The translations under genes and the position numbers were made by a program. This document shows positions 22,866-62,315 of a DNA stretch of 64,000 nt, in pieces. How positions within the stretch are numbered: position 1 is the stretch's first letter; every line of letters begins with the position of its first letter. Under the pieces are notes generated by a model. The model did no database searches. It was not told the origin of the DNA and was given only the letters and a program-made list of their open reading frames with translations. Source of the stretch: Acetobacter malorum (lineage in GTDB: Bacteria > Pseudomonadota > Alphaproteobacteria > Acetobacterales > Acetobacteraceae); NCBI RefSeq assembly GCF_001580615.1, contig NZ_LHZC01000056.1, forward strand, positions 62,001-126,000. Direction: 5' to 3'.

Positions 22866-24755
22866 TTATACTCCCTGTGCGGTCTTCAGAACCGCCAGAA
22901 CGGCTTCCCCATAGCGCTCCAGCTTGGAACGACCAACGCCCTTCACTTCCCCGAGTTCAGCAAGGCTGGTCGGCATACCCAGCGCAATGTCCCGCAAGGC
23001 GGAATCATGGAAGATCACATAAGGCGGAATTTCCTGCTCCCGCGCCTCATCCAGCCGCCAGCTCCGGAGGGCGGCAAACACAGCCTGCTTTTCTTCCGGC
23101 AGCTCAGCCAGCGTTTCCGGTGTGCGGCTGCGGCTGGCTGCTTTTTCCAGTTCCTGCGTGGCGTCGGCCCGCAGACTGACAGGCTCTTCGCCGCGTAGAA
23201 TGGGCCGCGCGACCTCCTGATTAAGGGCGAGGCCGCTATATTGCCCTTCGCTCCGCAAGGCGCCGCGGGCAATGAGCTGCCGCCCAACGCCGCGCCAGAA
23301 CGGCTCACTCTTGTCTTTCCCAATGCCCCAGACAGACAGCGTGTCATGATGGTTGCGCTCAACAGCATCCGTCAGCTTGCCGCGTAGCACGGCGATGATA
23401 TGCAGCGCGCCAAATCTCTGACCCGTGCGATAGACGGTGGACAGAAATTTTCTGGCAGCATCCGTGCCGTCAAAGGTCACAACGGGATAACGGCAGTTAT
23501 CGCAGTGCCCGCATGGGCCTTCCAGCGTTTCGCCAAAACAGTGCAGCAACGCTCGTGTCCGGCAGCCGGTTGTTTCCGTCAGGGCAATCATGGCTTCCAG
23601 ACGGCTGCGCATAATGCGTTTTTCACTGTCCGGCGCAATGGACTGGTCCAGCCAGTAGCGGGCGCGGGCCATATCCTCGCCCCCATAAAGCAGCACGGTT
23701 TCAGACGGCAGGCCATCACGCCCTGCCCGTCCGATCTGCTGATAATAGGCTTCCGGAGAGCCGGGCATATCGAGGTGGATCACAGCCCGCACATCGGGGC
23801 GGTCAATCCCCATCCCGAACGCGACCGTCGCCACAATCACAATCGGCTCACCTGAGCGGAACCGCAACAAGGCTGCTCGCTTCTCAATCGGGGAAAGCCC
23901 GGCGTGGAAAGCCAGCGCTGTCCAGCCCTTATCCCGCAGGGCTGAGGCAATGCGCTCAGTCCGGGCGCGGCTGCCACAATAGACGATACAGGCTTCGTCC
24001 CTATGCCGCTCAAGAACAGCCGTGAGCTGCCGCATTTCCGAGGCTTTGGGGAGAGCCGCTATATTGAGGTTTGACCGATGGAAGCTGGAAACCAGCACTT
24101 CGGCATGCGGCATATCCAGCGCGGTAAGAATATCTTCCCGCGTGCGCTCGTCCGCTGTCGCAGTAAGCGCAATGCGTGGCACGTTTGGAAAATGTTTGGG
24201 GAGCGAGGCCAGCGCGCGATATTCCGGCCGGAATTCATGGCCCCACGCGGAAATACAATGGGCTTCGTCAATCGCAATGACGGAAATGGGTTGCCGTGTC
24301 AGCCGCTCCAGCGTGCCGGGGGAAAGCAAACGTTCCGGCGAGACATACAGCAGGTCAACACGTCCGGCGGCCAGATCTGAACGGATTTTTGCGGCTTCAT
24401 CCCCTTCCAGCTCGGAATGGAGTGCTGCGGCATTAATGCCGAGCTGCCGTAGCCCGGCCACCTGATCATCCATCAGGGCAATCAGGGGAGAAATGACCAG
24501 CCCCATGCCGGGGCGGCAGAGGGAGGGAACCTGATAACAGACGCTTTTCCCGCCGCCTGTCGGCATCAGGACAAGGGCGTCCCGGCCTTCCATAACGCAC
24601 TCGACCGCCTGCCCCTGCAGGCTCCGAAAATCGGGAAAGCCGAAAACGGCGTGCAGAACGTCTTTCGGGCTGGTGCCCACAAACCGGTCACGCCCCCCCG
24701 TATCCCGCGGCAGAGCAGGAGCCGGAGGTGTCATGTCGGTTTGTATCTCAGTCAT
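22866..24755 (-). CDS. recQ: ATP-dependent DNA helicase RecQ
   Basis: 3'-5' DNA helicase of recombination and replication repair. 629 residues. Walker A MPTGGGKS (65-72), DEAH box IDEAHCISAWGHEFRPEY (about 164), motif VI YYQQIGRAGRDG. The RecQ-C zinc site is visible (CRTRALLHCFGE, then CGHCDNC). A C-terminal HRDC domain follows (LRDIALGMPTSLAELGEVKGVGRSKLERYGEAVLAVL). It is flanked by an OmpA-like lipoprotein gene 6 nt upstream and by glpR 1 nt downstream, an apparently tight operon of unrelated functions. Confidence 0.96.
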   Translation of the reverse strand: MTEIQTDMTPPAPALPRDTGGRDRFVGTSPKDVLHAVFGFPDFRSLQGQAVECVMEGRDALVLMPTGGGKSVCYQVPSLCRPGMGLVISPLIALMDDQVAGLRQLGINAAALHSELEGDEAAKIRSDLAAGRVDLLYVSPERLLSPGTLERLTRQPISVIAIDEAHCISAWGHEFRPEYRALASLPKHFPNVPRIALTATADERTREDILTALDMPHAEVLVSSFHRSNLNIAALPKASEMRQLTAVLERHRDEACIVYCGSRARTERIASALRDKGWTALAFHAGLSPIEKRAALLRFRSGEPIVIVATVAFGMGIDRPDVRAVIHLDMPGSPEAYYQQIGRAGRDGLPSETVLLYGGEDMARARYWLDQSIAPDSEKRIMRSRLEAMIALTETTGCRTRALLHCFGETLEGPCGHCDNCRYPVVTFDGTDAARKFLSTVYRTGQRFGALHIIAVLRGKLTDAVERNHHDTLSVWGIGKDKSEPFWRGVGRQLIARGALRSEGQYSGLALNQEVARPILRGEEPVSLRADATQELEKAASRSRTPETLAELPEEKQAVFAALRSWRLDEAREQEIPPYVIFHDSALRDIALGMPTSLAELGEVKGVGRSKLERYGEAVLAVLKTAQGV

Positions 24756-50989: not shown

Positions 50990-53900
50990 ATGGATTTAGA
51001 GCATACGGAAGAGGTTTCCATCGCAACGGAAACACCGCAGCCAGACCCTGCGCCGGCTCCTCCTGCGTCGCCTGTTCTCAAAGTCTCCCTTCAGGATGCC
51101 CTGAACGCCTCACTCTGGGAAAACAGTGTGCCTGTTCTGCTGGAACTGGCCCTGCAGAACGAAACGGACCGCAGCTTTTCCCAGATTGACGTGACAGTCA
51201 GTAGTGAACCGACAGTTATTCGCCCCCGCTCATGGCACCTCCAGCAGGTCGAGCCCGGGCAGTTTCGCTCCCTGAAAGACCTCGATCTGAAACTGGATGG
51301 GGCGTTTCTGAGCAGCCAGACTGAAGCCTCTCGCGCCTCTGTCACCTTTCTGGCGACGGATAAGGAAACCGGAGAGGAACTGACGCGTCACACAACCGAC
51401 GTGCGTGTTCTGGCCCGCAATGAATGGGGTGGCTTGTCCGGTATTCCAGACATTCTGGCCGCATTCGTGCTGCCGAATGACCCGGCTATTGCCCGTATTC
51501 TGCGCAGTGCGACGGAGATCCTGAAAAAGGAAGGGCTATCCCCCTCTCTGGAAGGATATCAGGGCAACAAGGAACGTGTCTGGCAGCAGGCACAGGCGAT
51601 CTGGTGTGCTGTCTGCCAGCTTGATCTGGCCTACATCAACCCGCCTGCGTCCTTTATCGACCACGGGCAGCGCGTCCGCCTGCCCAGCCAGAGCGTGGAA
51701 GAACGTCTGGCGACCTGTCTGGACACTACAGTGCTGTTTGCAGCCTGTCTGGAAGCTGTGGGTATCCGTCCGATTATTGTTCTGACGCAAGGCCACGCTT
51801 TTACCGGCTTCTGGCTGGCAAAACTGGATGCCGGGGTTTCCGTCATGCAGGATCTGCCTGCCTTGCGGAACCGTCTGAAATTGCAGGATCTGGCGGTGTT
51901 TGAAACAACGCTGGTTACAGCCGGTCGTAAGCCCAGCTTCTCTGTGGCGTGTGAAAAAGGGGAAGCCAACCTGCGTCACGCGGGCGAGGACGAAGACAAC
52001 ACCTTCCGCGAGATTGTCGACATCCACCGCGCCAGACTGCGGCGCATTCATCCGCTCTCCTGCACCGTGCCCACCGCTCCGGCAGAGGATCAGCCCGACA
52101 CGGAAGAGCCGGAAGCCGCCCTGCCCGCGTTTGAAGCGGCACCAGCCCTACGGGAAGACCCACAGGACGCGGAAGAAGACAAACCTGCAACGCCCGCCGA
52201 CCGGCTCCAGCGCTGGTGTAATCGTCTGCTGGATATGTCGGGCCGTAACCGCCTGCTCAATCTGCCCCGCTCCGACAAGCAGCTGATTGTTATTGATTGC
52301 CCGAACGCGTCCGAGCTTGAAAATCATCTGGCCGCGATGCGGGCTGGACGGCTGACAAAGCCTCTGCGGTTCTGCCCCCGGCCGGACATGATGGACGAGG
52401 ATGACCCCCGTCAGGCCAGCCTGCATCATGAACGACATCATGAAGATGCGGCCCGCGCCTACGCTGAGGAAGCGCTCGGGCGGAATGAACTTCTGGTCTC
52501 CCGCAAGGAAAACCAGCTACAGGCAGCCCTGACAGAGCTTTATCGGCGCGCCCGTGCCGCTGAGCATGAGGGCGGGTCTAATGTTCTGTTCCTGACCATC
52601 GGCGCTCTGGCGTGGACGGCGGAGGGACGGGACAAGCCTTACCTTGCCCCCTTGATCCTGATCCCCGTTATTCTGGAACGGCCCAGCATCAAATCCGGCT
52701 TTGTTCTGCGCGCGCACCCCGATGAAAGCCGGATTAACGCGACATTGCTTGAAATGCTTCAAGGCGATTACGATTTGCGTTTCCCGGCTTTGGCAGGCGA
52801 AGCACTTCCGGAAGATGAGTCCGGGCTGGATGTTGAGCGTATTCTGGAACTCTTCCGGGTGGGCCTGCGCTCCGTGCCCGGCTGGGAAGTGCGGGATTAC
52901 GTCGCGTTGACGACACTCTCCTTCGCGAAGTTCCTGATGTGGAAAGACCTGCAGGAACGCAGTGACAAGCTCCGCACGAGCGAAGTCGCCACACGCCTGC
53001 TCGATGGTATCACCGCAGAAGATACCGAGGCAGCGCCCCTGCCCCGTTTTTTTGAAGTTGATGGCTCTTTGGACGAAGCACTCGTCAAGGCGGACCTTAT
53101 CTGCCCGATGGAAGCAGATTCCTCGCAGCTCAAAGCCGTTGCCCGTGCGGCATCTGGTGAGAGCTTTGTGCTGATTGGCCCGCCGGGCACCGGGAAAAGC
53201 CAGACCATTGCCAACATCATTGCCAACACACTGGCGCAAAACCGCACCATTCTTTTTGTTGCGGAAAAGCGGACGGCGCTGGAAGTGGTGCGCAACCGTC
53301 TGAAGCAGATCGGGCTGGCGGAATTCTGTCTGGACCTGTTCTCACCCAAAGCCAGCAAGCTGGCTGTGCTTGGCCAGCTTGAGGCCGCTCAGACAGTGCT
53401 GGAAACCTTCAGCCCGGATGAATGGGCCCATAGCCGCCAGCAACTTGACCAGATCCGTGCCGAACTGAACAACTACGTTGTTGTGCTGCACCAGAAATGG
53501 CGCAATGGCTGGACGGCCTATCGCGCTATTGGCGTGACGCTCCGCGCGGACGATGCGCAAACACTCGTCATCCCCCTGTCATGGCCTGATTGTAATGCTC
53601 ATACCGCGCAGGACTATCAGACGCTGGCCGACACGGCGGAAAATATTGCCAGCCTGTATGAGCGTATTGGCGATGTTGTGCAGTCGCCCAAACTGGCGGG
53701 GCTTGAGCATGTGGAGTGGTCGCCCATCTGGGAAGGGCGCCTGCTGGATGCCGTCACCGCAGCCCTTGCCAGCCTGAGCCGCCTGCGCACTACCGCAGAG
53801 GAGGCCGCGCGCACCCTAGGGTTGGAGGCATCAGATTTATCTCTGCGCCGCCTGCGACAGATGAGCATTCTGTGCAACCAACTCCTGAAACAGGAAGCCT

Positions 53901-56900
53901 GCGCATGGGCTTTTCCAGACACCTCTCAGCAAACACTAAAGACTCTTCTGGCCGAAAAAACGCCGATTGCGCGGCACGCCCAGCTCAAAGGCGAACTCCG
54001 CACGGACTGGAAGCCGGACGTGCTGAGTCTGCCGCTGGAAAGCATGGTGCAGGAATGGCAGGATTCCAAAGAAAAATGGATTTTTGCCCGGTCTAAAATT
54101 CAGAAGGCCCTGCGCAAAAAACTGGAAAGCCACACAAACGCCCTGCCGGATGAGTGTGAAGAGGATCTGGTTCGTCTGGCGGAAATACAGGCTCTGGAAA
54201 AGCAGCTGAAGGACGCGCCGCACCACGCTGTTGTTGGCTCGGTCTGGAAGGGTCTGGATACCAATTTCAGCACCATTGAGGCCATGCATGCATGGGGCGC
54301 CGAAACACGCGCGGCACTGGCTGCCTGCGCGGGCGATACAGCCGGCTTGCTCGCCGCCCGTACGCATCTGAATGCGCTTCTGCGCGACGGGATGGATCTG
54401 CTGCGCACTGGTGGGCCAGTTAATCATACGCTCAAAGCATTTCAGGCTGCTCTGGTTGAGTGCCTGACCAGCCTTGAAGCGCTCGGCGCTCTCAGCGGAT
54501 CAGACGCGCTGGCGCTGGTTGAAGGCAGCCAGAAAACATGGCCGGACGCCATGACAGAAACTCTGCTGGCCTGGAAACAGTCTGCGCGAGATTTGCGGGA
54601 CTGGTGTTCCTGGAAACATGCCTGTCAGGATGCTGTCCGGCTTGGTCTGACCCCGCTGATTGCCGCGATTGAGCATGGTCTGGTGGCATCACATGATGTC
54701 ACACGCGTGTTTGAAGCCAATTATGCGCGCTGGTGGGTCCGGTTTGCGATTGATCAGTCCCCCCTGCTGCGGAGCTTTGTGGCGGCGACGCATGAAAAGC
54801 AGATCGAGCGCTTCCGCACGCTGGACCGCAAATTGATGGAAATGTCCGTCAAGCTCATCCGCTCACAACTGGCCGGGCAAATCCCGGATGCCAGAACCCG
54901 TCAGACAGACCCGGAATATAAGGTGCTGACGCGGGAACTGGCCAAGAAAATGCAGCACCTCCCCATCCGGCAACTGGCAGAAAAAATGCCCACGGCTCTG
55001 CGCCGCCTGACACCCTGCCTGATGATGAGCCCGCTCTCCGTCGCGCAGTATCTTCCTGCAGACGCCACCGCTTTTGACCTCGTGATTTTCGATGAAGCCT
55101 CGCAAATCCCGACATGGGACGCAATCGGGGCGATTGGCCGCGGCAAGCAGGTCATTGTGGTGGGTGACCCTAAACAGCTGCCGCCGACAGACTTCTTCAA
55201 CCGGACTGCCTCCGATACAGATGAGGTGATGGAAACCCAGACCTGTGATCTGGAATCCATTCTGGATGAGTGCCTCGGAGCGGGTGTGCCGCCCGTTAAC
55301 CTCTCGTGGCATTATCGCAGCCGGCATGAGAGCCTGATCGCCTTTTCCAATCAGGCCTATTATGGCGGCCAGCTCATTACCTTCCCCTCACCCGTCACCA
55401 AAGATCAGGCGGTTTCCTTCCGCTTTGTGCCGGGGGGCGTCTATATGCGCGGCGCAGGTCGCACCAACCCGGTCGAGGCCCGCGCTGTTGTGGCGGAGGC
55501 GCTTCGTCTGTTGCAGGATGGTTCCGAGCGCTCTCTGGGCATTGTCACCTTCAATAGTGACCAGCAAACCCTGATTACCGATCTGATGGACAAGGCCCGG
55601 AGTGAAGACCCGGCTCTTGAGCGGTTCTTTAGTGATGAAGCCGCGGAACCCGTGCTGATCCGCAATCTGGAAAACGTACAGGGTGAGGAGCGTGATATCA
55701 TGCTGTTCTCCCTGACCTACGGGCCGGATCAGGCTGGCAAAATTACTCTGAATTTTGGCCCGCTGAACCGTGATGGCGGGGAGCGCCGCCTGAACGTCGC
55801 CATCACCCGCGCCCGTGAGCGTTTGATTGTATTCGGCTCCTTGCATGGGGATCAGATTGATATTGCCCGCACGCAGGCCGTCGGGGTGCATGATCTGCGC
55901 AAGTTCCTCACCTTTGCCGAACACGGTGCGACCGCACTGGCTGGGCTGCACGAAGGCTCTGTGGGCGACTTTGATAGTGATTTTGAGAAAGAAGTTGCCG
56001 CCCTGCTCCGCCTGAAAGGCTGGCAGGTTGTGCCGCAGATTGGCGTTTCCGGCTTCCGGGTTGATCTGGGTGTTGTGGACCCAGACCGCCCGACCACCTT
56101 CCTCGCCGGGGTGGAGTGCGATGGCGCGACCTATCATCGCAGCGCCACGGCGCGAGACCGCGACCGGCTGCGTCAGGCAGTTCTGGAAAATCTGGGCTGG
56201 ACCATCCTCAGAATCTGGTCGACCGACTGGTGGACCAACGCCCAGCGCGAGTGTGACCGGCTGGACAAAGCTCTGCATGCCCTGCTGACCAAAATGCGGG
56301 AAGAGCGTGGGGCGCAGGAAGAAGAGGAACGCGCCCGGGCTGCCCTTCTCACAGCGGAGACTGATCATGCTGAGGCACAAGAGGCTGCCTTGGCACAGGA
56401 TGAGGCAGGGAACGCAGAAGGAACCTCAGATCTCCCCGATAACTCTACACCCGGCGGAGCCGCATCAGACGAGCCGGGGTTTTACGCACGGGCACCAGAG
56501 TATGTGTTGCCGCAGGTCGATGCAGCGTTACCGATCACAGAACTGGAAGCCTCTGAAACTCAGCCAGATGCAGTGCCCGATCAGGCCCTGTTCTTCAAGG
56601 AAACCTACACGCCTACGCTGATCCGTCTCATTCAGCAGGAAGTAAACAAACATGGTCCGGTGCGGGAGGATCTGCTCGTGCAGTCTCTCTCCCGCCAGCA
56701 TGGCTTTGCACGGGCCGGGCGGGAAATCCGCGAGCGTGTTCAGGGGCTGATCCCTGCTACGCTCCCGCGCACGGAAGAAGAGGTGGGCACCTTTATCTGG
56801 CCAGAAAACCGTTCGCCAGATGCGCCGCTGGCTTTCAAAGCCCCCGCCCCGCAGGAAACGTTGGACCCGGCAACCGTGCCGCTTTCCATGCTGGTCAGTC

Positions 56901-57055
56901 TGGCAAAAACACTGTTGGTCACCGGGCTGCCGGATGAGGAGCTTATTGCCACCATGCGCAAAGCCTGTGGCATGGGCCGTATGGGCGCAGCGACCCGAGC
57001 TCGGTTTGAAGCCGCGTTGGCGCGCAGTCGTGTTGCCGCAGACGGCACTACCTGA
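50990..57055 (+). CDS. Giant DUF4011-type helicase-nuclease with transglutaminase-like and DUF3320 domains
   Basis: 2021 residues. Order: an N-terminal beta-rich part (30-155); a transglutaminase-like fold with Cys243 (RLATCLDTTVLFAACLEAVGI) and His269 (QGHAFTGFWL); a DUF4011-like region from about 405 (LQRWCNRLLDMSGRNRLLNLPRS); a superfamily 1 (Upf1-like) helicase with Walker A GPPGTGKSQTIAN (about 730-742), Walker B DLVIFDEASQ (Asp1368), GDPKQLPPTDFF, NVQGEERDIM and NVAITRARERL; a Vsr/MTES_1575-type PD-(D/E)XK nuclease (SDFEKEVAALLRLKGWQVV, FRVDLGVVD, GVECDGATYH at about 1708, LRIWSTDWW); and a C-terminal DUF3320 (about 1873-1920). GGAG lies 9 nt before the ATG. Relatives are often suspected of genome defence. 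It stands alone, with no partner genes on either side. Confidence 0.88.
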   Translation: MDLEHTEEVSIATETPQPDPAPAPPASPVLKVSLQDALNASLWENSVPVLLELALQNETDRSFSQIDVTVSSEPTVIRPRSWHLQQVEPGQFRSLKDLDLKLDGAFLSSQTEASRASVTFLATDKETGEELTRHTTDVRVLARNEWGGLSGIPDILAAFVLPNDPAIARILRSATEILKKEGLSPSLEGYQGNKERVWQQAQAIWCAVCQLDLAYINPPASFIDHGQRVRLPSQSVEERLATCLDTTVLFAACLEAVGIRPIIVLTQGHAFTGFWLAKLDAGVSVMQDLPALRNRLKLQDLAVFETTLVTAGRKPSFSVACEKGEANLRHAGEDEDNTFREIVDIHRARLRRIHPLSCTVPTAPAEDQPDTEEPEAALPAFEAAPALREDPQDAEEDKPATPADRLQRWCNRLLDMSGRNRLLNLPRSDKQLIVIDCPNASELENHLAAMRAGRLTKPLRFCPRPDMMDEDDPRQASLHHERHHEDAARAYAEEALGRNELLVSRKENQLQAALTELYRRARAAEHEGGSNVLFLTIGALAWTAEGRDKPYLAPLILIPVILERPSIKSGFVLRAHPDESRINATLLEMLQGDYDLRFPALAGEALPEDESGLDVERILELFRVGLRSVPGWEVRDYVALTTLSFAKFLMWKDLQERSDKLRTSEVATRLLDGITAEDTEAAPLPRFFEVDGSLDEALVKADLICPMEADSSQLKAVARAASGESFVLIGPPGTGKSQTIANIIANTLAQNRTILFVAEKRTALEVVRNRLKQIGLAEFCLDLFSPKASKLAVLGQLEAAQTVLETFSPDEWAHSRQQLDQIRAELNNYVVVLHQKWRNGWTAYRAIGVTLRADDAQTLVIPLSWPDCNAHTAQDYQTLADTAENIASLYERIGDVVQSPKLAGLEHVEWSPIWEGRLLDAVTAALASLSRLRTTAEEAARTLGLEASDLSLRRLRQMSILCNQLLKQEACAWAFPDTSQQTLKTLLAEKTPIARHAQLKGELRTDWKPDVLSLPLESMVQEWQDSKEKWIFARSKIQKALRKKLESHTNALPDECEEDLVRLAEIQALEKQLKDAPHHAVVGSVWKGLDTNFSTIEAMHAWGAETRAALAACAGDTAGLLAARTHLNALLRDGMDLLRTGGPVNHTLKAFQAALVECLTSLEALGALSGSDALALVEGSQKTWPDAMTETLLAWKQSARDLRDWCSWKHACQDAVRLGLTPLIAAIEHGLVASHDVTRVFEANYARWWVRFAIDQSPLLRSFVAATHEKQIERFRTLDRKLMEMSVKLIRSQLAGQIPDARTRQTDPEYKVLTRELAKKMQHLPIRQLAEKMPTALRRLTPCLMMSPLSVAQYLPADATAFDLVIFDEASQIPTWDAIGAIGRGKQVIVVGDPKQLPPTDFFNRTASDTDEVMETQTCDLESILDECLGAGVPPVNLSWHYRSRHESLIAFSNQAYYGGQLITFPSPVTKDQAVSFRFVPGGVYMRGAGRTNPVEARAVVAEALRLLQDGSERSLGIVTFNSDQQTLITDLMDKARSEDPALERFFSDEAAEPVLIRNLENVQGEERDIMLFSLTYGPDQAGKITLNFGPLNRDGGERRLNVAITRARERLIVFGSLHGDQIDIARTQAVGVHDLRKFLTFAEHGATALAGLHEGSVGDFDSDFEKEVAALLRLKGWQVVPQIGVSGFRVDLGVVDPDRPTTFLAGVECDGATYHRSATARDRDRLRQAVLENLGWTILRIWSTDWWTNAQRECDRLDKALHALLTKMREERGAQEEEERARAALLTAETDHAEAQEAALAQDEAGNAEGTSDLPDNSTPGGAASDEPGFYARAPEYVLPQVDAALPITELEASETQPDAVPDQALFFKETYTPTLIRLIQQEVNKHGPVREDLLVQSLSRQHGFARAGREIRERVQGLIPATLPRTEEEVGTFIWPENRSPDAPLAFKAPAPQETLDPATVPLSMLVSLAKTLLVTGLPDEELIATMRKACGMGRMGAATRARFEAALARSRVAADGTT

Positions 57056-57244: not shown

Positions 57245-59041
57245 ATGTCCTCTCACGATCCGTTTCCGCGCCGCATTCTTCCTCTTCCTATTGAAGACTA
57301 TGCCCTGCTGGGGGATTGCCACACTGCGGCACTGACCGGCCGGGATGGCACTATCGACTGGCTCTGCCTGCCACGGTTTGACAGCCCGGCCTGCATGACG
57401 GCGTTGCTGGGAACAGCGGAACACGGATACTGGGCTTTACACCCAGTAGAACCCGTTCTCAGCGTGCAGCGTCGCTATCGCGAGGACACTCTGATTTTAG
57501 AAACCACATTTACCACCCAGACCGGTGAAGTGATGTTGACGGAGTGTATGCCGGTTGAGCAGGAACACCGCACGCTGATCCGCCGCGTGACGGCTGTTCG
57601 CGGACAGGTGCAGATGCGTTGCAGCCTGCGTTTGCGGTTTGACTACGGGCAAACCATCCCGTGGGTCACCAGACTGCCTGATGGAAGCGGTCTTTGCGCC
57701 ATCGCGGGACCGGATCAGGTGGTATTACGCTCCACAGTGCCGCTCCAAGGGCAGCACCTGACAACAGAAGCTATTTTTGAGGTGAAAGACGGTCAGACAG
57801 AAACCTTCGTTCTGCAACATGCCCTCTCTCACGAGCCCCTTCCTTCCGCGCTCGATGCGGAGGCCGCACTGGCCTACACCGAGCAATGGTGGCGGAACTG
57901 GTGCGCACACTGCACCTATCACGGACCATGGCGCGAGGCCGTTCTCCGCTCTCTGATCGTCCTCAAGGCACTCACCTACGCGCCAACCGGCGGGATTATT
58001 GCCGCCCCCACAACGTCTTTGCCGGAAGATCCGGGCGGTATTCGAAACTGGGATTATCGCTATTGCTGGTTGCGGGATGCCGCCCTGACCCTCTCAGCCT
58101 TTATTTCCTGCGGGTATCATACCGAGGCTCAGGCCTGGCGCGACTGGCTCCATCGCAGCATTGCGGGAGACGCCAGCCAGATTCAGATCATGTATGGCCT
58201 GTGTGGGGAGCGAAATTTACAGGAATGGACTGTTGAAAGCCTGCCCGGCTACCACAATGCCGCTCCTGTTCGTATTGGTAATGCGGCGGCGGATCAGGTG
58301 CAGCTCGATATTTACGGCATCATGGCGCACGTCGCACAGCTTGGGCGAGCCGCAAGGCTGCATAACCGCCATTCAGCCTGGGCGTTGCAAACAGAGGTCG
58401 TCAACTGGCTACAGCATATCTGGAAGCAACCTGATCAGGGCATCTGGGAAGTGCGCGGAGGCCCGAGGCAGTTTGTGCATTCCAAAGTGATGGCATGGTT
58501 CACGTTTGAGGCCTCTTTGGAGGATATGGAGCGCTACAGGCTCCCCGGCCCCAAGGAAAGCTGGACCCGGACCCGCGATGCTCTGCATGCCGATATTTGT
58601 AAAAATGGTTTTAATAAAGAGCTTGGCAGCTTTGTACAGTTTTATGGCGGCGATACGCTGGACGCGGCTTTACTGCTCCTCCCCCGGGTAGGCTTTTTGC
58701 CATATGATGACCCCCGCATTCAGCAAACCATTGCCATGATTGAAAAACACCTGCTCAAAGAGGGCTTTCTGCAAAGATACAAAACCTGCGACAATGTGGA
58801 TGGCCTGAATTCCACGGAAGGAGCCTTTCTGGCCTGCACCTTCTGGCTGGCCGATGCTTATGCGCTGTCAGGCCGACGAGAGGACGCGATAGCGTTATTT
58901 GAAAAACTGCTGAGCCTGCGGAATGATGTCGGCCTGCTGGCGGAGGAGTATGACCCACGGAACAACACGCAACTGGGCAATTTTCCGCAGGGCTTTTCCC
59001 ATCTGGCGCTTATTCATACAGCCTTAACACTTTCCGCTTAG
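57245..59041 (+). CDS. Glycoside hydrolase family 15 protein (glucoamylase/trehalase-like)
   Basis: 598 residues, no signal peptide, so cytosolic. N-terminal domain begins PIEDYALLGDCHTAALTGRDGTIDWLCLPRFDSPACMTALLG, typical of the bacterial GH15 group that includes trehalases and glucodextranase-like enzymes. The (alpha/alpha)6 barrel has GGIRNWDYRYCWLRDAALTL. Candidate catalytic acids are Glu402 (WEVRGG) and Glu567/568 (LLAEEYDP) near GNFPQGFSHLALI. The substrate, perhaps trehalose or an alpha-glucan, is not certain. AAGGAT lies 6 nt before the ATG. Confidence 0.88.
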   Translation: MSSHDPFPRRILPLPIEDYALLGDCHTAALTGRDGTIDWLCLPRFDSPACMTALLGTAEHGYWALHPVEPVLSVQRRYREDTLILETTFTTQTGEVMLTECMPVEQEHRTLIRRVTAVRGQVQMRCSLRLRFDYGQTIPWVTRLPDGSGLCAIAGPDQVVLRSTVPLQGQHLTTEAIFEVKDGQTETFVLQHALSHEPLPSALDAEAALAYTEQWWRNWCAHCTYHGPWREAVLRSLIVLKALTYAPTGGIIAAPTTSLPEDPGGIRNWDYRYCWLRDAALTLSAFISCGYHTEAQAWRDWLHRSIAGDASQIQIMYGLCGERNLQEWTVESLPGYHNAAPVRIGNAAADQVQLDIYGIMAHVAQLGRAARLHNRHSAWALQTEVVNWLQHIWKQPDQGIWEVRGGPRQFVHSKVMAWFTFEASLEDMERYRLPGPKESWTRTRDALHADICKNGFNKELGSFVQFYGGDTLDAALLLLPRVGFLPYDDPRIQQTIAMIEKHLLKEGFLQRYKTCDNVDGLNSTEGAFLACTFWLADAYALSGRREDAIALFEKLLSLRNDVGLLAEEYDPRNNTQLGNFPQGFSHLALIHTALTLSA

Positions 59042-59206: not shown

Positions 59207-59776
59207 ATGACTCAGAGTTCACGTCGTTTTTTTCTACGTGACAAAACACAGTCCGATCATACAGAGCTGGATCAGCTCATTGGCCCTTTGACCTCCGAGC
59301 CAGCCTATCGCCGTTACCTGAAAAGCCTGACCGCATTCCGGAGAGGGGCCGAGCAGGCCATCAGTATGGTCAAATGGCCAGAGAGCCTGTCCGAGTGGGC
59401 TCCTGTGTCCCTCACCGTGATAATGCAGGCCGACCTGAAGGATCTGCAGGAAACTCACACTCCCCTGCCCGCTTTCAGCCCTCCGGCATCCATTCCGGCC
59501 CTGCTGGGTGTGCTGTATGTTCTGGAAGGCTCCTCCCTCGGCGCCCGCTTTCTGGCCAGGCAGGTTGCAGCTCTGGGATACACGCAGGATTTTGGGGCAC
59601 GGCATCTGGCAATCCAGACCGCCTCTCCCGACAACTGGCAGCACTTTCTTCGCCTTCTGGATACCGCTCCTGAATGGAATGCAGAGGCCGCAGCGGACGC
59701 TGCCCACAGTCTTTTTCGCTATGCCATTGCTGCCGTAAGGCACACAGACAGCCTTACGGAAACACCACATGGTTGA
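59207..59776 (+). CDS. bphO: Biliverdin-producing heme oxygenase
   Basis: Opens heme to biliverdin IXalpha, the chromophore of the phytochrome encoded next. 189 residues, all helical. The presumed proximal heme ligand is His18 in DKTQSDHTELDQLIG; the distal helix is ALLGVLYVLEGSSLGARFLARQV, with the conserved Gly-rich bend. Its end overlaps the bphP start by 8 nt, so the two are translationally coupled. GAGG lies 6 nt before the ATG. Confidence 0.9.
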   Translation: MTQSSRRFFLRDKTQSDHTELDQLIGPLTSEPAYRRYLKSLTAFRRGAEQAISMVKWPESLSEWAPVSLTVIMQADLKDLQETHTPLPAFSPPASIPALLGVLYVLEGSSLGARFLARQVAALGYTQDFGARHLAIQTASPDNWQHFLRLLDTAPEWNAEAAADAAHSLFRYAIAAVRHTDSLTETPHG

Positions 59777-62315
59777 ATTTGGTCAGGCAGACCTTACCAG
59801 CTGCGATAAAGAGCCCATCCATATCCCCGGCAGTATTCAGCCGCATGGCTGTTTGCTGGCCTGTGAGGGCGATACGTTCCGGGTGCGGCGTGTTTCTGCC
59901 AATGCCGCCAGCATGCTGGGGCTGGCAGGGCTGGCTCCCGGTGTCCTGCTTTCGGATTATCTGAGCGCCAGCACTTTGCACGCCCTGCGCAATGCTCTGG
60001 CTCACAGCCTCTCCCTTGGGCGGCCAGCCTATATGTTTGGCGTGCATCTTGCCGGGGCGGCTGCGTTCGATCTCTCCATCCATGTCTCTGGGGACGATAT
60101 TGTTATTGAGTGCGAGCCGGAAGGCGCGCCGGAAGACAACAGTCAGTCCGTCGCCAGCCTGCGGATGATGCTCGACCGCCTGCGCAACATGTCGGACATG
60201 GAGACCCTGTTCAGGGCCGTCGTGCGGCTGATGCGAGGCATGCTGCATTATGACCGGGTGATGATCTATCGCTTTGACCCGGACTGGTCTGGCAAGATCG
60301 TGGCGGAAGCACGGTCCTCTGTTCTTGAGAGTTTTCTGGGGCAGCATTTTCCCAGCGCCGATATTCCAGCACAGGCGCGAGATCTGTATCAGCGTGCCCT
60401 GATCCGCATGATCGGGGATGTTGGCTATACCCCAGTGCCGGTGCAGGAACTGCCGGGGCTTGGGCCGCTGGATATGTCTCTCTCCCAGTTGCGGAGCGTC
60501 TCCCCCATTCATTGTGAGTATCTGAGCAATATGGGCGTGGGGGCCTCCATGTCTATTTCCCTGATGGTGGACGGGAAATTGTGGGGCATGATTGCCTGCC
60601 ACAACTATTCCCCCAAAATCCTGACATTGGGTGAGCGCACAATCGTCAAGATTTTTGGTGAGTTTGTTGCGTTGCGAATTGTGGTGCTGCTCAGAACCAG
60701 CCGCCTGCAGGTCACCCAGCAGACTCACATCCTGATCGAAAATTTTTTGAGAGAAGCTGTCCCGATGTCGGACATGCCTTCTTACCTGCGCCAGCATATT
60801 GCCGATCTCGCTCCCCTCATCCCCTGCGATGGGATTGGTTTATGGATCAATGGCCAGTGGACCACGCACGGTAGCGCTCCCTCCGCGCCCGATGTCGTGC
60901 TGGGGCTGGTCTCCATCGCGCATGAACGCGCCGGCCACCATATCTGGCATACGGATCATCTGACCGGGCTCACCCCGGATGCAGCAGGTTTGTTGCCAGA
61001 CGTTGCTGGTGTGATGATTATCCCTATCTCTGCCCAGCCGAAGGATTATGTCTTCCTCTTCCGGCGGGAAATCCTCCAGACGCTGAATTGGGGCGGTGAC
61101 CCTAACAAAACCTATACCAACGGCCCGCTCGGCCCACGTCTGACCCCGCGCACCAGCTTTGCCATCTGGAAGGAAGAGGTGCAGAAAAAGTGCCTCCCCT
61201 GGACCGATAATAATCTGGAAGCCGCAGGACTGGTCCGCTCCGGGTTGATTGAGGTGATGGGCGCCTATCATCAGCAGCAATTAAAAGAACGCTCTCAGGC
61301 TGACACGCGCCAGCGCATGCTGAATGAAGAACTCAGCCACCGGGTGAAGAATATTCTGGCCGTCGTGCAATCTCTTATGGCGCGACCAGTGCCAGAAGGC
61401 CGCACGATGCAGGAACATTTCGTTATCCTGCAAGGACGAGTGAAGGCTCTGGCGACCGCGCATGATCAGGTCGTCCGCACTGATGGCGGCGGTCTGCTTT
61501 ATCCTCTTCTGGAAGCTGAGCTGGCCCCGTACCGGCTCCTGCCCGATACCATTACGCTTTCTGGCCCACAGATCTGGCTGACAGGCCGCGCCTTGTCCGT
61601 CATCGCGCTGATTGTGCATGAACTGGCAACCAATGCGGCAAAATATGGTGCGTTTTCCAATCGGGAGGGCCGTTTGCATGTTTCCTGGTGGCAGGATGAA
61701 GCGACGCAGGACTGGGTAATAACCTGGCAGGAAGTCGGTGGCCCACCCATCAGCAAGCCTGAGAGCAAAGGCTTTGGTTCCATTTTGCTGGACCGGGCTG
61801 TTCCGCATGAGTTGCATGGCAAAACAATAAAAGAATTTCGAACGGAAGGGCTTTTCATCCGTTTTAATCTTCCCAGCCACCATGCTGAGTTGATCACACA
61901 GGAGAACAGCACCATGCAGGAACCCCTGAAAGCAGAAGTCATGCAGGCAGACCGCGTGCGACTGCAGGACAAGAGTATCCTGATTGTGGAAGATCAGCTT
62001 TTGATTGCGATGGATGTTGAGCAGGCCCTGTCAGACCACGGTCTTTCTGATGTGCGCACAGTCTCCTCTGTTTACGAAGCCCTGCAGGCCATACGCACGC
62101 ACCATCCTGACCTTGCTCTGCTTGATTTCAATCTGGGTGATGAAACGTCGACCGACGTGGCGCGCACGCTGCGGGAGCGAGGCATCCCGTTTCTGTTTGC
62201 CACGGGTTATGCTGATCGCTCCATGATCCCCACAGAATTTCACGATGTGCCCGTAGTGCGTAAGCCCTACGCTCCCATCACTCTGATCCGGGAAATGGAA
62301 AAACTCATCGGCTGA
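59769..62315 (+). CDS. bphP: Bacteriophytochrome hybrid HWE kinase with receiver domain
   Basis: Red/far-red light sensor, cytosolic. 848 residues: PAS with the biliverdin-binding Cys12 (LTSCDKEPIHIPGSIQPHG), GAF (RVMIYRFDPDWSGKIVAE and the lock motif HFPSADIPAQARDLY), PHY (about 340-510), HWE-class kinase with His524 (EELSHRVKNILAVVQSL) and WQE in ITWQEVGG (about 651), HATPase Asn in ELATNAAKYGAF, and a C-terminal receiver with Asp786 (LALLDFNLGDETS). The fused receiver may accept the phosphate or modulate the kinase. No output DNA-binding gene lies nearby. It converges on the transporter ATPase gene after 9 nt. Confidence 0.93.
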   Translation: MVEFGQADLTSCDKEPIHIPGSIQPHGCLLACEGDTFRVRRVSANAASMLGLAGLAPGVLLSDYLSASTLHALRNALAHSLSLGRPAYMFGVHLAGAAAFDLSIHVSGDDIVIECEPEGAPEDNSQSVASLRMMLDRLRNMSDMETLFRAVVRLMRGMLHYDRVMIYRFDPDWSGKIVAEARSSVLESFLGQHFPSADIPAQARDLYQRALIRMIGDVGYTPVPVQELPGLGPLDMSLSQLRSVSPIHCEYLSNMGVGASMSISLMVDGKLWGMIACHNYSPKILTLGERTIVKIFGEFVALRIVVLLRTSRLQVTQQTHILIENFLREAVPMSDMPSYLRQHIADLAPLIPCDGIGLWINGQWTTHGSAPSAPDVVLGLVSIAHERAGHHIWHTDHLTGLTPDAAGLLPDVAGVMIIPISAQPKDYVFLFRREILQTLNWGGDPNKTYTNGPLGPRLTPRTSFAIWKEEVQKKCLPWTDNNLEAAGLVRSGLIEVMGAYHQQQLKERSQADTRQRMLNEELSHRVKNILAVVQSLMARPVPEGRTMQEHFVILQGRVKALATAHDQVVRTDGGGLLYPLLEAELAPYRLLPDTITLSGPQIWLTGRALSVIALIVHELATNAAKYGAFSNREGRLHVSWWQDEATQDWVITWQEVGGPPISKPESKGFGSILLDRAVPHELHGKTIKEFRTEGLFIRFNLPSHHAELITQENSTMQEPLKAEVMQADRVRLQDKSILIVEDQLLIAMDVEQALSDHGLSDVRTVSSVYEALQAIRTHHPDLALLDFNLGDETSTDVARTLRERGIPFLFATGYADRSMIPTEFHDVPVVRKPYAPITLIREMEKLIG

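What the first reader, a model, noticed from the sequence alone, without database searches (positions are those of the whole stretch)
50990..57055. Stand-alone 2021-residue transglutaminase-like/helicase/nuclease fusion as a candidate defence or surveillance protein
Seen directly: one chain joins a Cys/His transglutaminase-like fold (Cys243, His269), a DUF4011-type module, an SF1 helicase with intact Walker A and DEAS Walker B, a Vsr-like nuclease (RVDLGVVD ... GVECDGATYH) and DUF3320. Known: SF1 helicases fused to PD-(D/E)XK nucleases recur in anti-phage systems. Inference: a single-gene defence system, or a fusion of target recognition, unwinding and cleavage with a possible protease or peptide-processing step. 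The coupling of a transglutaminase-like domain to a helicase-nuclease is the least explained part.
Basis: partly seen in the sequence, partly recalled or inferred. Interest (0 to 1): 0.62.

Follow-up and report, generated by a model that had tools for sequence, protein, structure and literature searches.

The report
Known ProA-type anti-phage helicase-nuclease
This very large acetic-acid-bacterium protein belongs to an already named anti-phage family called ProA, whose unusual domain fusion was described in print in 2013, so it is a good identification but not a new kind of system.

Summary
In detail: one 2021-residue ORF (50990-57055, +) joins an Ig-like sandwich, a transglutaminase-like domain, DUF4011, an SF1 helicase, a Vsr-like nuclease and DUF3320. 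It is not a new system. NCBIfam's 'anti-phage protein ProA' equivalog matches end to end, 2136 bits against a cut-off of 1500. Nearly the same fusion was described and proposed as anti-virus defence by Anantharaman et al. 2013 (PMC3710099, passages). A Cys243-His269-Glu305 set and the helicase and nuclease acidic residues are invariant in 47 chosen sequences.

Distribution fits defence: intact in 12 of 49 genomes of the genus (Acetobacter), broken or fragmentary in five, and on 47 plasmid records at 80% coverage or more. Two Acetobacter copies are 92.7-93.7% identical to two Gluconobacter copies, while RecQ and ValS of the same genomes share only 64-69%: recent transfer between genera. No partner gene is conserved.

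Against: here it sits among housekeeping genes, not in a defence island. The primary experiment behind the name ProA was not found. What the transglutaminase-like domain does is open.

The parts
50990..57055 (+). ProA-type gene, 2021 aa
   Evidence: ORF; NF058533.1 2136.4 bits (cut-off 1500), protein 39-1997, profile 1-1903/1903
51062..51412 (+). Ig-like beta-sandwich, residues 25-141
   Evidence: AlphaFold2 model of residues 1-600, mean pLDDT 80; VIA-align Z up to 10.2 to sandwich domains, among them those of transglutaminases
51437..52039 (+). transglutaminase-like domain, about residues 150-350
   Evidence: profile-profile E=2.8e-4 (local) to Transglut_core domains; weak DUF553/Transglut_core hits in 15 and 8 of 36; alpha/beta model
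51716..51718 (+). Cys243, predicted nucleophile
   Evidence: 47 of 47 sequences
51794..51796 (+). His269, predicted catalytic
   Evidence: 47 of 47 sequences
51902..51904 (+). Glu305, probable third triad residue
   Evidence: 47 of 47 sequences; role inferred
52223..52759 (+). DUF4011, residues 412-590
   Evidence: Pfam 133.3 bits
53177..53200 (+). Walker A GPPGTGKS, residues 730-737
   Evidence: each residue 47 of 47
53387..55009 (+). mostly helical insertion of about 540 residues between helicase motifs I and II (about 800-1340)
   Evidence: AlphaFold2 model of 690-1780, mean pLDDT 81; boundaries approximate
55091..55102 (+). Walker B DEAS, residues 1368-1371
   Evidence: 47 of 47
55256..55840 (+). 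helicase C-terminal RecA-like domain (AAA_12), residues 1423-1617
   Evidence: Pfam 64.4 bits; Upf1/Sen1/Ighmbp2/Dna2-like by sequence and, with Aquarius, by fold
55982..56275 (+). Vsr-like REase (MTES_1575), residues 1665-1762
   Evidence: Pfam 121.3 bits; E1666, D1692, E1709, D1711 47 of 47
56591..56734 (+). DUF3320 (overlaps the wHTH described in PMC3710099), residues 1868-1915
   Evidence: Pfam 41.3 bits; PMC3710099 passages

Best explanation
The gene encodes a ProA-family single-gene anti-phage protein. Most likely the C-terminal DUF3320/wHTH and the SF1 helicase engage invading or replicating phage DNA, ATP-driven translocation presents DNA to the Vsr-like nuclease in the same chain, and the nuclease cuts it. 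The N-terminal Cys-His-Glu transglutaminase-like domain is probably a peptidase that acts as a second effector or controls activation. Shown: domains, intact motifs, family membership, patchy and mobile distribution. Inferred: every mechanistic step, and the anti-phage activity of this particular copy.
For: NCBIfam equivalog antiphage_ProA end to end; PADLOC candidate defence family PDC-S37 1232 bits; published prediction for a near-identical fusion (PMC3710099, passages). Helicase, nuclease and triad residues invariant in 47 chosen sequences. Over the cut-off in 14 of 49 genus genomes (0 of 14 control genomes over it, 7 ring below it); 12 of the 14 are one open frame, one is split into two ORFs and one is interrupted by transposase genes. 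Two Acetobacter and two Gluconobacter copies share 92.7-93.7% where RecQ of the same genomes shares 63.7-65.6% and ValS 68.3-69.4%. 47 plasmid records with at least 80% coverage, one a conjugative Gluconobacter plasmid with a restriction gene beside it and toxin-antitoxin genes within 8 kb. No neighbour family in more than 5 of 45 loci; the three found in 4-5 loci over several genera are HsdM, HsdS and Mrr.
Against: No experiment on this copy or its close relatives was seen, and the paper behind the name ProA was not found. In the window it sits among housekeeping genes and is shared at the same site by its nearest species, so here it is inherited, not freshly acquired. Restriction neighbours are seen in a minority of loci. 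A large DUF4011 gene is core in every P. aeruginosa isolate (PMC10250203, passages), so related proteins can be stably kept; whether that one is ProA was not tested. The models give no trusted domain arrangement (pTM 0.58 and 0.51). 12 of the 47 sequences lack DUF3320, so that domain cannot be essential to the mechanism in all members.
Confidence: 0.72

Rival explanations
1. It is a general DNA-repair or recombination factor (Dna2/Upf1-like helicase with a Vsr-like nuclease) that happens to be accessory in Acetobacter.
For: Helicase resembles Dna2, Sen1, Upf1 and Aquarius; the nuclease is Vsr-like, a repair-nuclease fold (recalled); it sits among chromosomal housekeeping genes; a DUF4011 gene is core in P. 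aeruginosa (PMC10250203, passages).
Against: Absent, broken, fragmentary or cut by a contig end in 37 of 49 genus genomes, on plasmids, moved between genera, restriction neighbours in some loci.
Confidence: 0.12
2. It is a plasmid- or foreign-DNA-interference enzyme whose main target is conjugating or transforming DNA rather than phage.
For: The same domains could act on any incoming DNA; found on plasmids, many predicted conjugative, where it could act in competition between plasmids.
Against: The curated name is anti-phage; nothing here separates the two targets.
Confidence: 0.12
3. The gene is a relic without function in this strain.
For: Some relatives have broken copies or remnants.
Against: This copy is a full open frame with every checked residue intact, and 95% and 93% identical to the open frames of two sister species.
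Confidence: 0.04

Closest known systems
ProA anti-phage family (NCBIfam NF058533.1)
   Same: End-to-end match above the equivalog cut-off
   Different: Nothing found that separates this protein from the family; its own activity is untested
HEPN-transglutaminase-SF1 helicase-Vsr REase-wHTH giant proteins of Anantharaman et al. 2013 (MTES_1575, PMC3710099)
   Same: Transglutaminase-like peptidase, SF1 helicase, Vsr REase and wHTH/DUF3320 in one chain; no modification gene with them (passages)
   Different: Those described also carry an active HEPN domain; none was found here. The one RX6H-like match examined, R1261-H1268, has R in only 36 of 47
Hhe (NCBIfam NF042953, DUF4011 anti-phage protein)
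   Same: 863.7 bits, best stretch 1175-1799
   Different: Well below the equivalog cut-off of 2000 bits
PADLOC PDC-S37
   Same: 1232 bits over residues 404-2012
   Different: The match does not include the N-terminal transglutaminase-like part

Membership tests
ProA (NF058533.1) | whole-protein score over the curated equivalog cut-off | tested here: met
   2136.4 vs 1500 bits, profile 1-1903/1903
ProA (NF058533.1) | experimentally shown protection against phage | not testable with these tools
   no experiment can be run; primary report not found
Transglutaminase-like domain | sequence relationship and Cys-His-acidic set | tested here: met
   C243, H269, E305 47 of 47; local profile-profile E=2.8e-4 vs 0.0049 or worse for six other segments, global 0.026
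Transglutaminase-like domain | transglutaminase fold shown by structure comparison | tested here: inconclusive
   the fold search was filled by the Ig-like part 25-141
SF1 (Upf1-like) helicase | conserved ATPase and arginine motifs | tested here: met
   K736, D1368, E1369, D1393, Q1396, R1443, R1607 all 47 of 47
Vsr-like REase MTES_1575 (PF18741) | family score and acidic active-site residues | tested here: met
   121.3 bits vs 38.2; E1666, D1692, E1709, D1711 47 of 47
HEPN-bearing giant proteins of PMC3710099 | HEPN domain with RX4-6H | tested here: inconclusive
   no Pfam HEPN match at E<=0.001; only one candidate motif was examined, and its R is in 36 of 47
Hhe (NF042953) | score over the equivalog cut-off | tested here: not met
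   863.7 vs 2000 bits
Defence island gene | neighbours are defence genes in this window | tested here: not met
   Nramp, TonB receptor, GH15, phytochrome kinase around it; ValS, RecQ, CydDC, GuaB, GlpK, GlpD further off

The most novel reading that the evidence does not exclude
The transglutaminase-like domain is a working cysteine peptidase switched by the helicase when it meets phage DNA, cutting a host or phage protein, or the enzyme itself, so that ProA would be a helicase-gated protease plus nuclease with two separate effector outputs in one chain.
Probability: 0.3. Interest if true: 0.5.

Novelty: already known. Interest (0 to 1): 0.17.

Why it matters
It places ProA-type defence in Acetobacter, a fermentation genus, shows that the gene is lost and passed between genera there, and records an invariant Cys-His-Glu set that makes the question of a protease step directly testable. 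It does not add a new kind of system.

Tried and rejected
The primary literature for 'ProA' or PDC-S37 was sought in eight searches without success. DefenseFinder's 'Prometheus' appears in passages of four papers that I looked into, but none says what the protein is; that ProA might stand for it is a guess from initials and is not used. A fifth paper used HHE for something else.

A HEPN domain was looked for through one RX6H-like motif, which is not conserved. A conserved partner gene was looked for in 45 chosen loci (460 ORFs) and not found. Ten neighbour families occur in three or more loci. Three were identified in part as restriction genes: HsdM in 5 loci, HsdS in 4, Mrr in 4, with not every member scanned. 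Of the other seven, five are confined to Acetobacter copies and one to the Alcanivorax group (L090, L102, L115); one (L046, L067, L069) spans genera, and its three ORFs that I scanned have no Pfam match.

Defence enrichment by PADLOC is weak evidence. 97 of 107 ORFs around ten Acetobacter copies gave four families with one member each. 99 of 109 ORFs around fourteen other Acetobacteraceae copies gave 157 families, of which the 25 shown are restriction or mad families. The ORFs dropped were at locus ends. The 48 window ORFs used as a control also gave 25 families, which I put down to a plain RecQ and ABC transporters seen (inferred, since one search does not name the member). So I count only the restriction genes.

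The fold search of the N-terminal model was filled by the Ig-like sandwich, so it neither confirms nor excludes the transglutaminase fold. Composition does not mark the gene as foreign: G+C 0.58-0.62 against 0.51-0.62 around it. A nucleotide-level copy among the plasmids was sought and not found. In one search I put the window among 'other' by mistake; one search repeats the count with the right label and is the one cited. In one search minus-strand loci were read on the wrong strand; one search replaces it.

Full report
Observation. The ORF 50990..57055 (+) codes for 2021 aa and has one match in its genome. Pfam finds DUF4011, the SF1 helicase, MTES_1575 REase and DUF3320. The transglutaminase-like part is below Pfam's thresholds on this protein, but three results support it: weak DUF553 and Transglut_core hits in 15 and 8 of 36 sequences; a local profile-profile match of E=2.8e-4 (probability 41%, 67 columns) with the nucleophile superposed, where six other segments give 0.0049 or worse, and E=0.026 in global mode where the others give 0.078 or worse; and a Cys243-His269-Glu305 set invariant in 47 of 47 sequences. 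Those 47 are this protein, 43 of the 61 loci and 3 unnamed loci; the 18 loci left out are fragmentary, split or more divergent. An Ig-like sandwich (25-141) precedes the domain. A mostly helical insertion of about 540 residues separates helicase motifs I and II. The helicase residues checked are 47 of 47, and so are the nuclease's E1666, D1692, E1709 and D1711. DUF3320 is absent from 12 of the 47, eleven gammaproteobacterial copies and one Gastranaerophilales copy that end soon after the nuclease.

Identity. NCBIfam NF058533.1 'anti-phage protein ProA' matches at 2136.4 bits against 1500, over profile positions 1-1903 of 1903. Hhe is clearly second, 863.7 bits against a cut-off of 2000. PADLOC's candidate family PDC-S37 matches at 1232 bits. 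Anantharaman et al. 2013 (PMC3710099; [quoted passage not shown] They propose direct recognition of invading DNA through the wHTH domains and a further line of defence by protein cleavage. No HEPN was detected in the version here (inconclusive).

Distribution. Of 49 genomes of the genus, 14 exceed the cut-off; none of 14 control genomes does, though 7 ring below it. Of the 14, 12 are one open frame; one (A. persici) is split into two ORFs; one is interrupted after residue 529 by a transposase gene in pieces with a second transposase gene inside it. One more is cut by contig ends and two are remnants; of the other 32, seven have only weak, mostly helicase-region matches and 25 have none. Of 24 genomes of other families of the class, 1 exceeds the cut-off. 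The genus is Acetobacter; the nearest copies are A. cerevisiae (95%) and A. malorum (93%). The site between the TonB receptor and GH15 is shared by these two. A. persici has ProA there but no GH15, and an uncultured relative has both sides of the site on separate contigs. In genome G024 the TonB receptor is followed, after about 100 bases, by DNA matching the 3' part of the phytochrome kinase, so ProA, GH15 and the rest are missing; a deletion is the simplest reading (inferred).

Transfer. A tree of 24 Acetobacteraceae copies needs five changes of the label Acetobacter, four forced by supported branches; the label is still more clustered than in most shuffles (mean 8.4 changes; 11 of 500 as low). 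The clearer test is by control genes: two Acetobacter copies (G013, Acetobacter sp. AN02) are 92.7-93.7% identical to the copies of Gluconobacter vitians and Gluconobacter sp. Dm-62, while RecQ of the same four genomes shares 63.7-65.6% and ValS 68.3-69.4% across the two genera. That is recent transfer; its direction is not known, and it does not concern the window's own copy, which sits at a site shared with its sister species. 328 plasmid records match at E<=1e-50, 47 of them over at least 80% of the query. A conjugative Gluconobacter albidus plasmid carries it beside a short restriction endonuclease gene, with toxin-antitoxin genes within about 8 kb. One of 50,697 phage records matches at E<=1e-30.

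Context. In 45 chosen loci with 460 neighbouring ORFs, no family recurs in more than 5 loci, so no partner gene is evident. The three families found in 4-5 loci over several genera are HsdM (5), HsdS (4) and Mrr (4). The window copy has no such neighbours: Nramp, TonB receptor, GH15 and phytochrome kinase flank it, and further genes are housekeeping.

Mechanism. The best reading is single-chain defence: DNA engaged by wHTH and helicase, cut by the nuclease, with the transglutaminase-like domain as a probable peptidase effector or regulator. Domain presence and conservation are shown; the order of events, target and trigger are inferred. Counter-evidence is the ordinary chromosomal setting here, the members without DUF3320, and a core DUF4011 gene in P. 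aeruginosa (PMC10250203, passages), whose relation to ProA I did not test.

Verdict. Observation confirmed, interpretation supported, novelty low: a member of a named anti-phage family with a published architecture. The open point, whether the conserved triad is a working protease, was already raised in 2013 and remains a fair experimental question.

Noticed in passing
L050:6083-9043 (unnamed Acetobacter genome G003): The ProA copy is interrupted by a transposase gene in pieces (133 and 222 aa) with a second, 461-aa transposase gene inside it on the opposite strand: nested insertion elements.
   Followed up: yes
window 59769-62315: A phytochrome-type HWE histidine kinase with a receiver domain; in genome G024 only DNA matching its 3' part remains.
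   Followed up: partly
window 57245-59041: A GH15 trehalase-like gene next to ProA, missing at the same site in A. persici; 16 of 49 genus genomes have any match, at 34-100% identity.
   Followed up: partly
window 22866-24755: An ordinary RecQ (703.7 bits, cut-off 640.2) that also matches NCBIfam DpdF below its cut-off; it is probably the member behind the strong PADLOC DpdF hits, which could mislead an automatic defence scan.
   Followed up: partly
relatives L080, L081, L086, L088, L089, L090, L092, L093, L096, L103, L113, L114: A subgroup of ProA proteins of 1739-1809 aa that lack the C-terminal DUF3320 part (12 of 47); how they would recognise DNA is unexplained.
   Followed up: no
plasmid records CP094888.1 and CP095469.1 (listing): Klebsiella plasmid copies of the gene with IS21-family genes annotated under the match, so apparently interrupted; seen in the listing only.
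   Followed up: no
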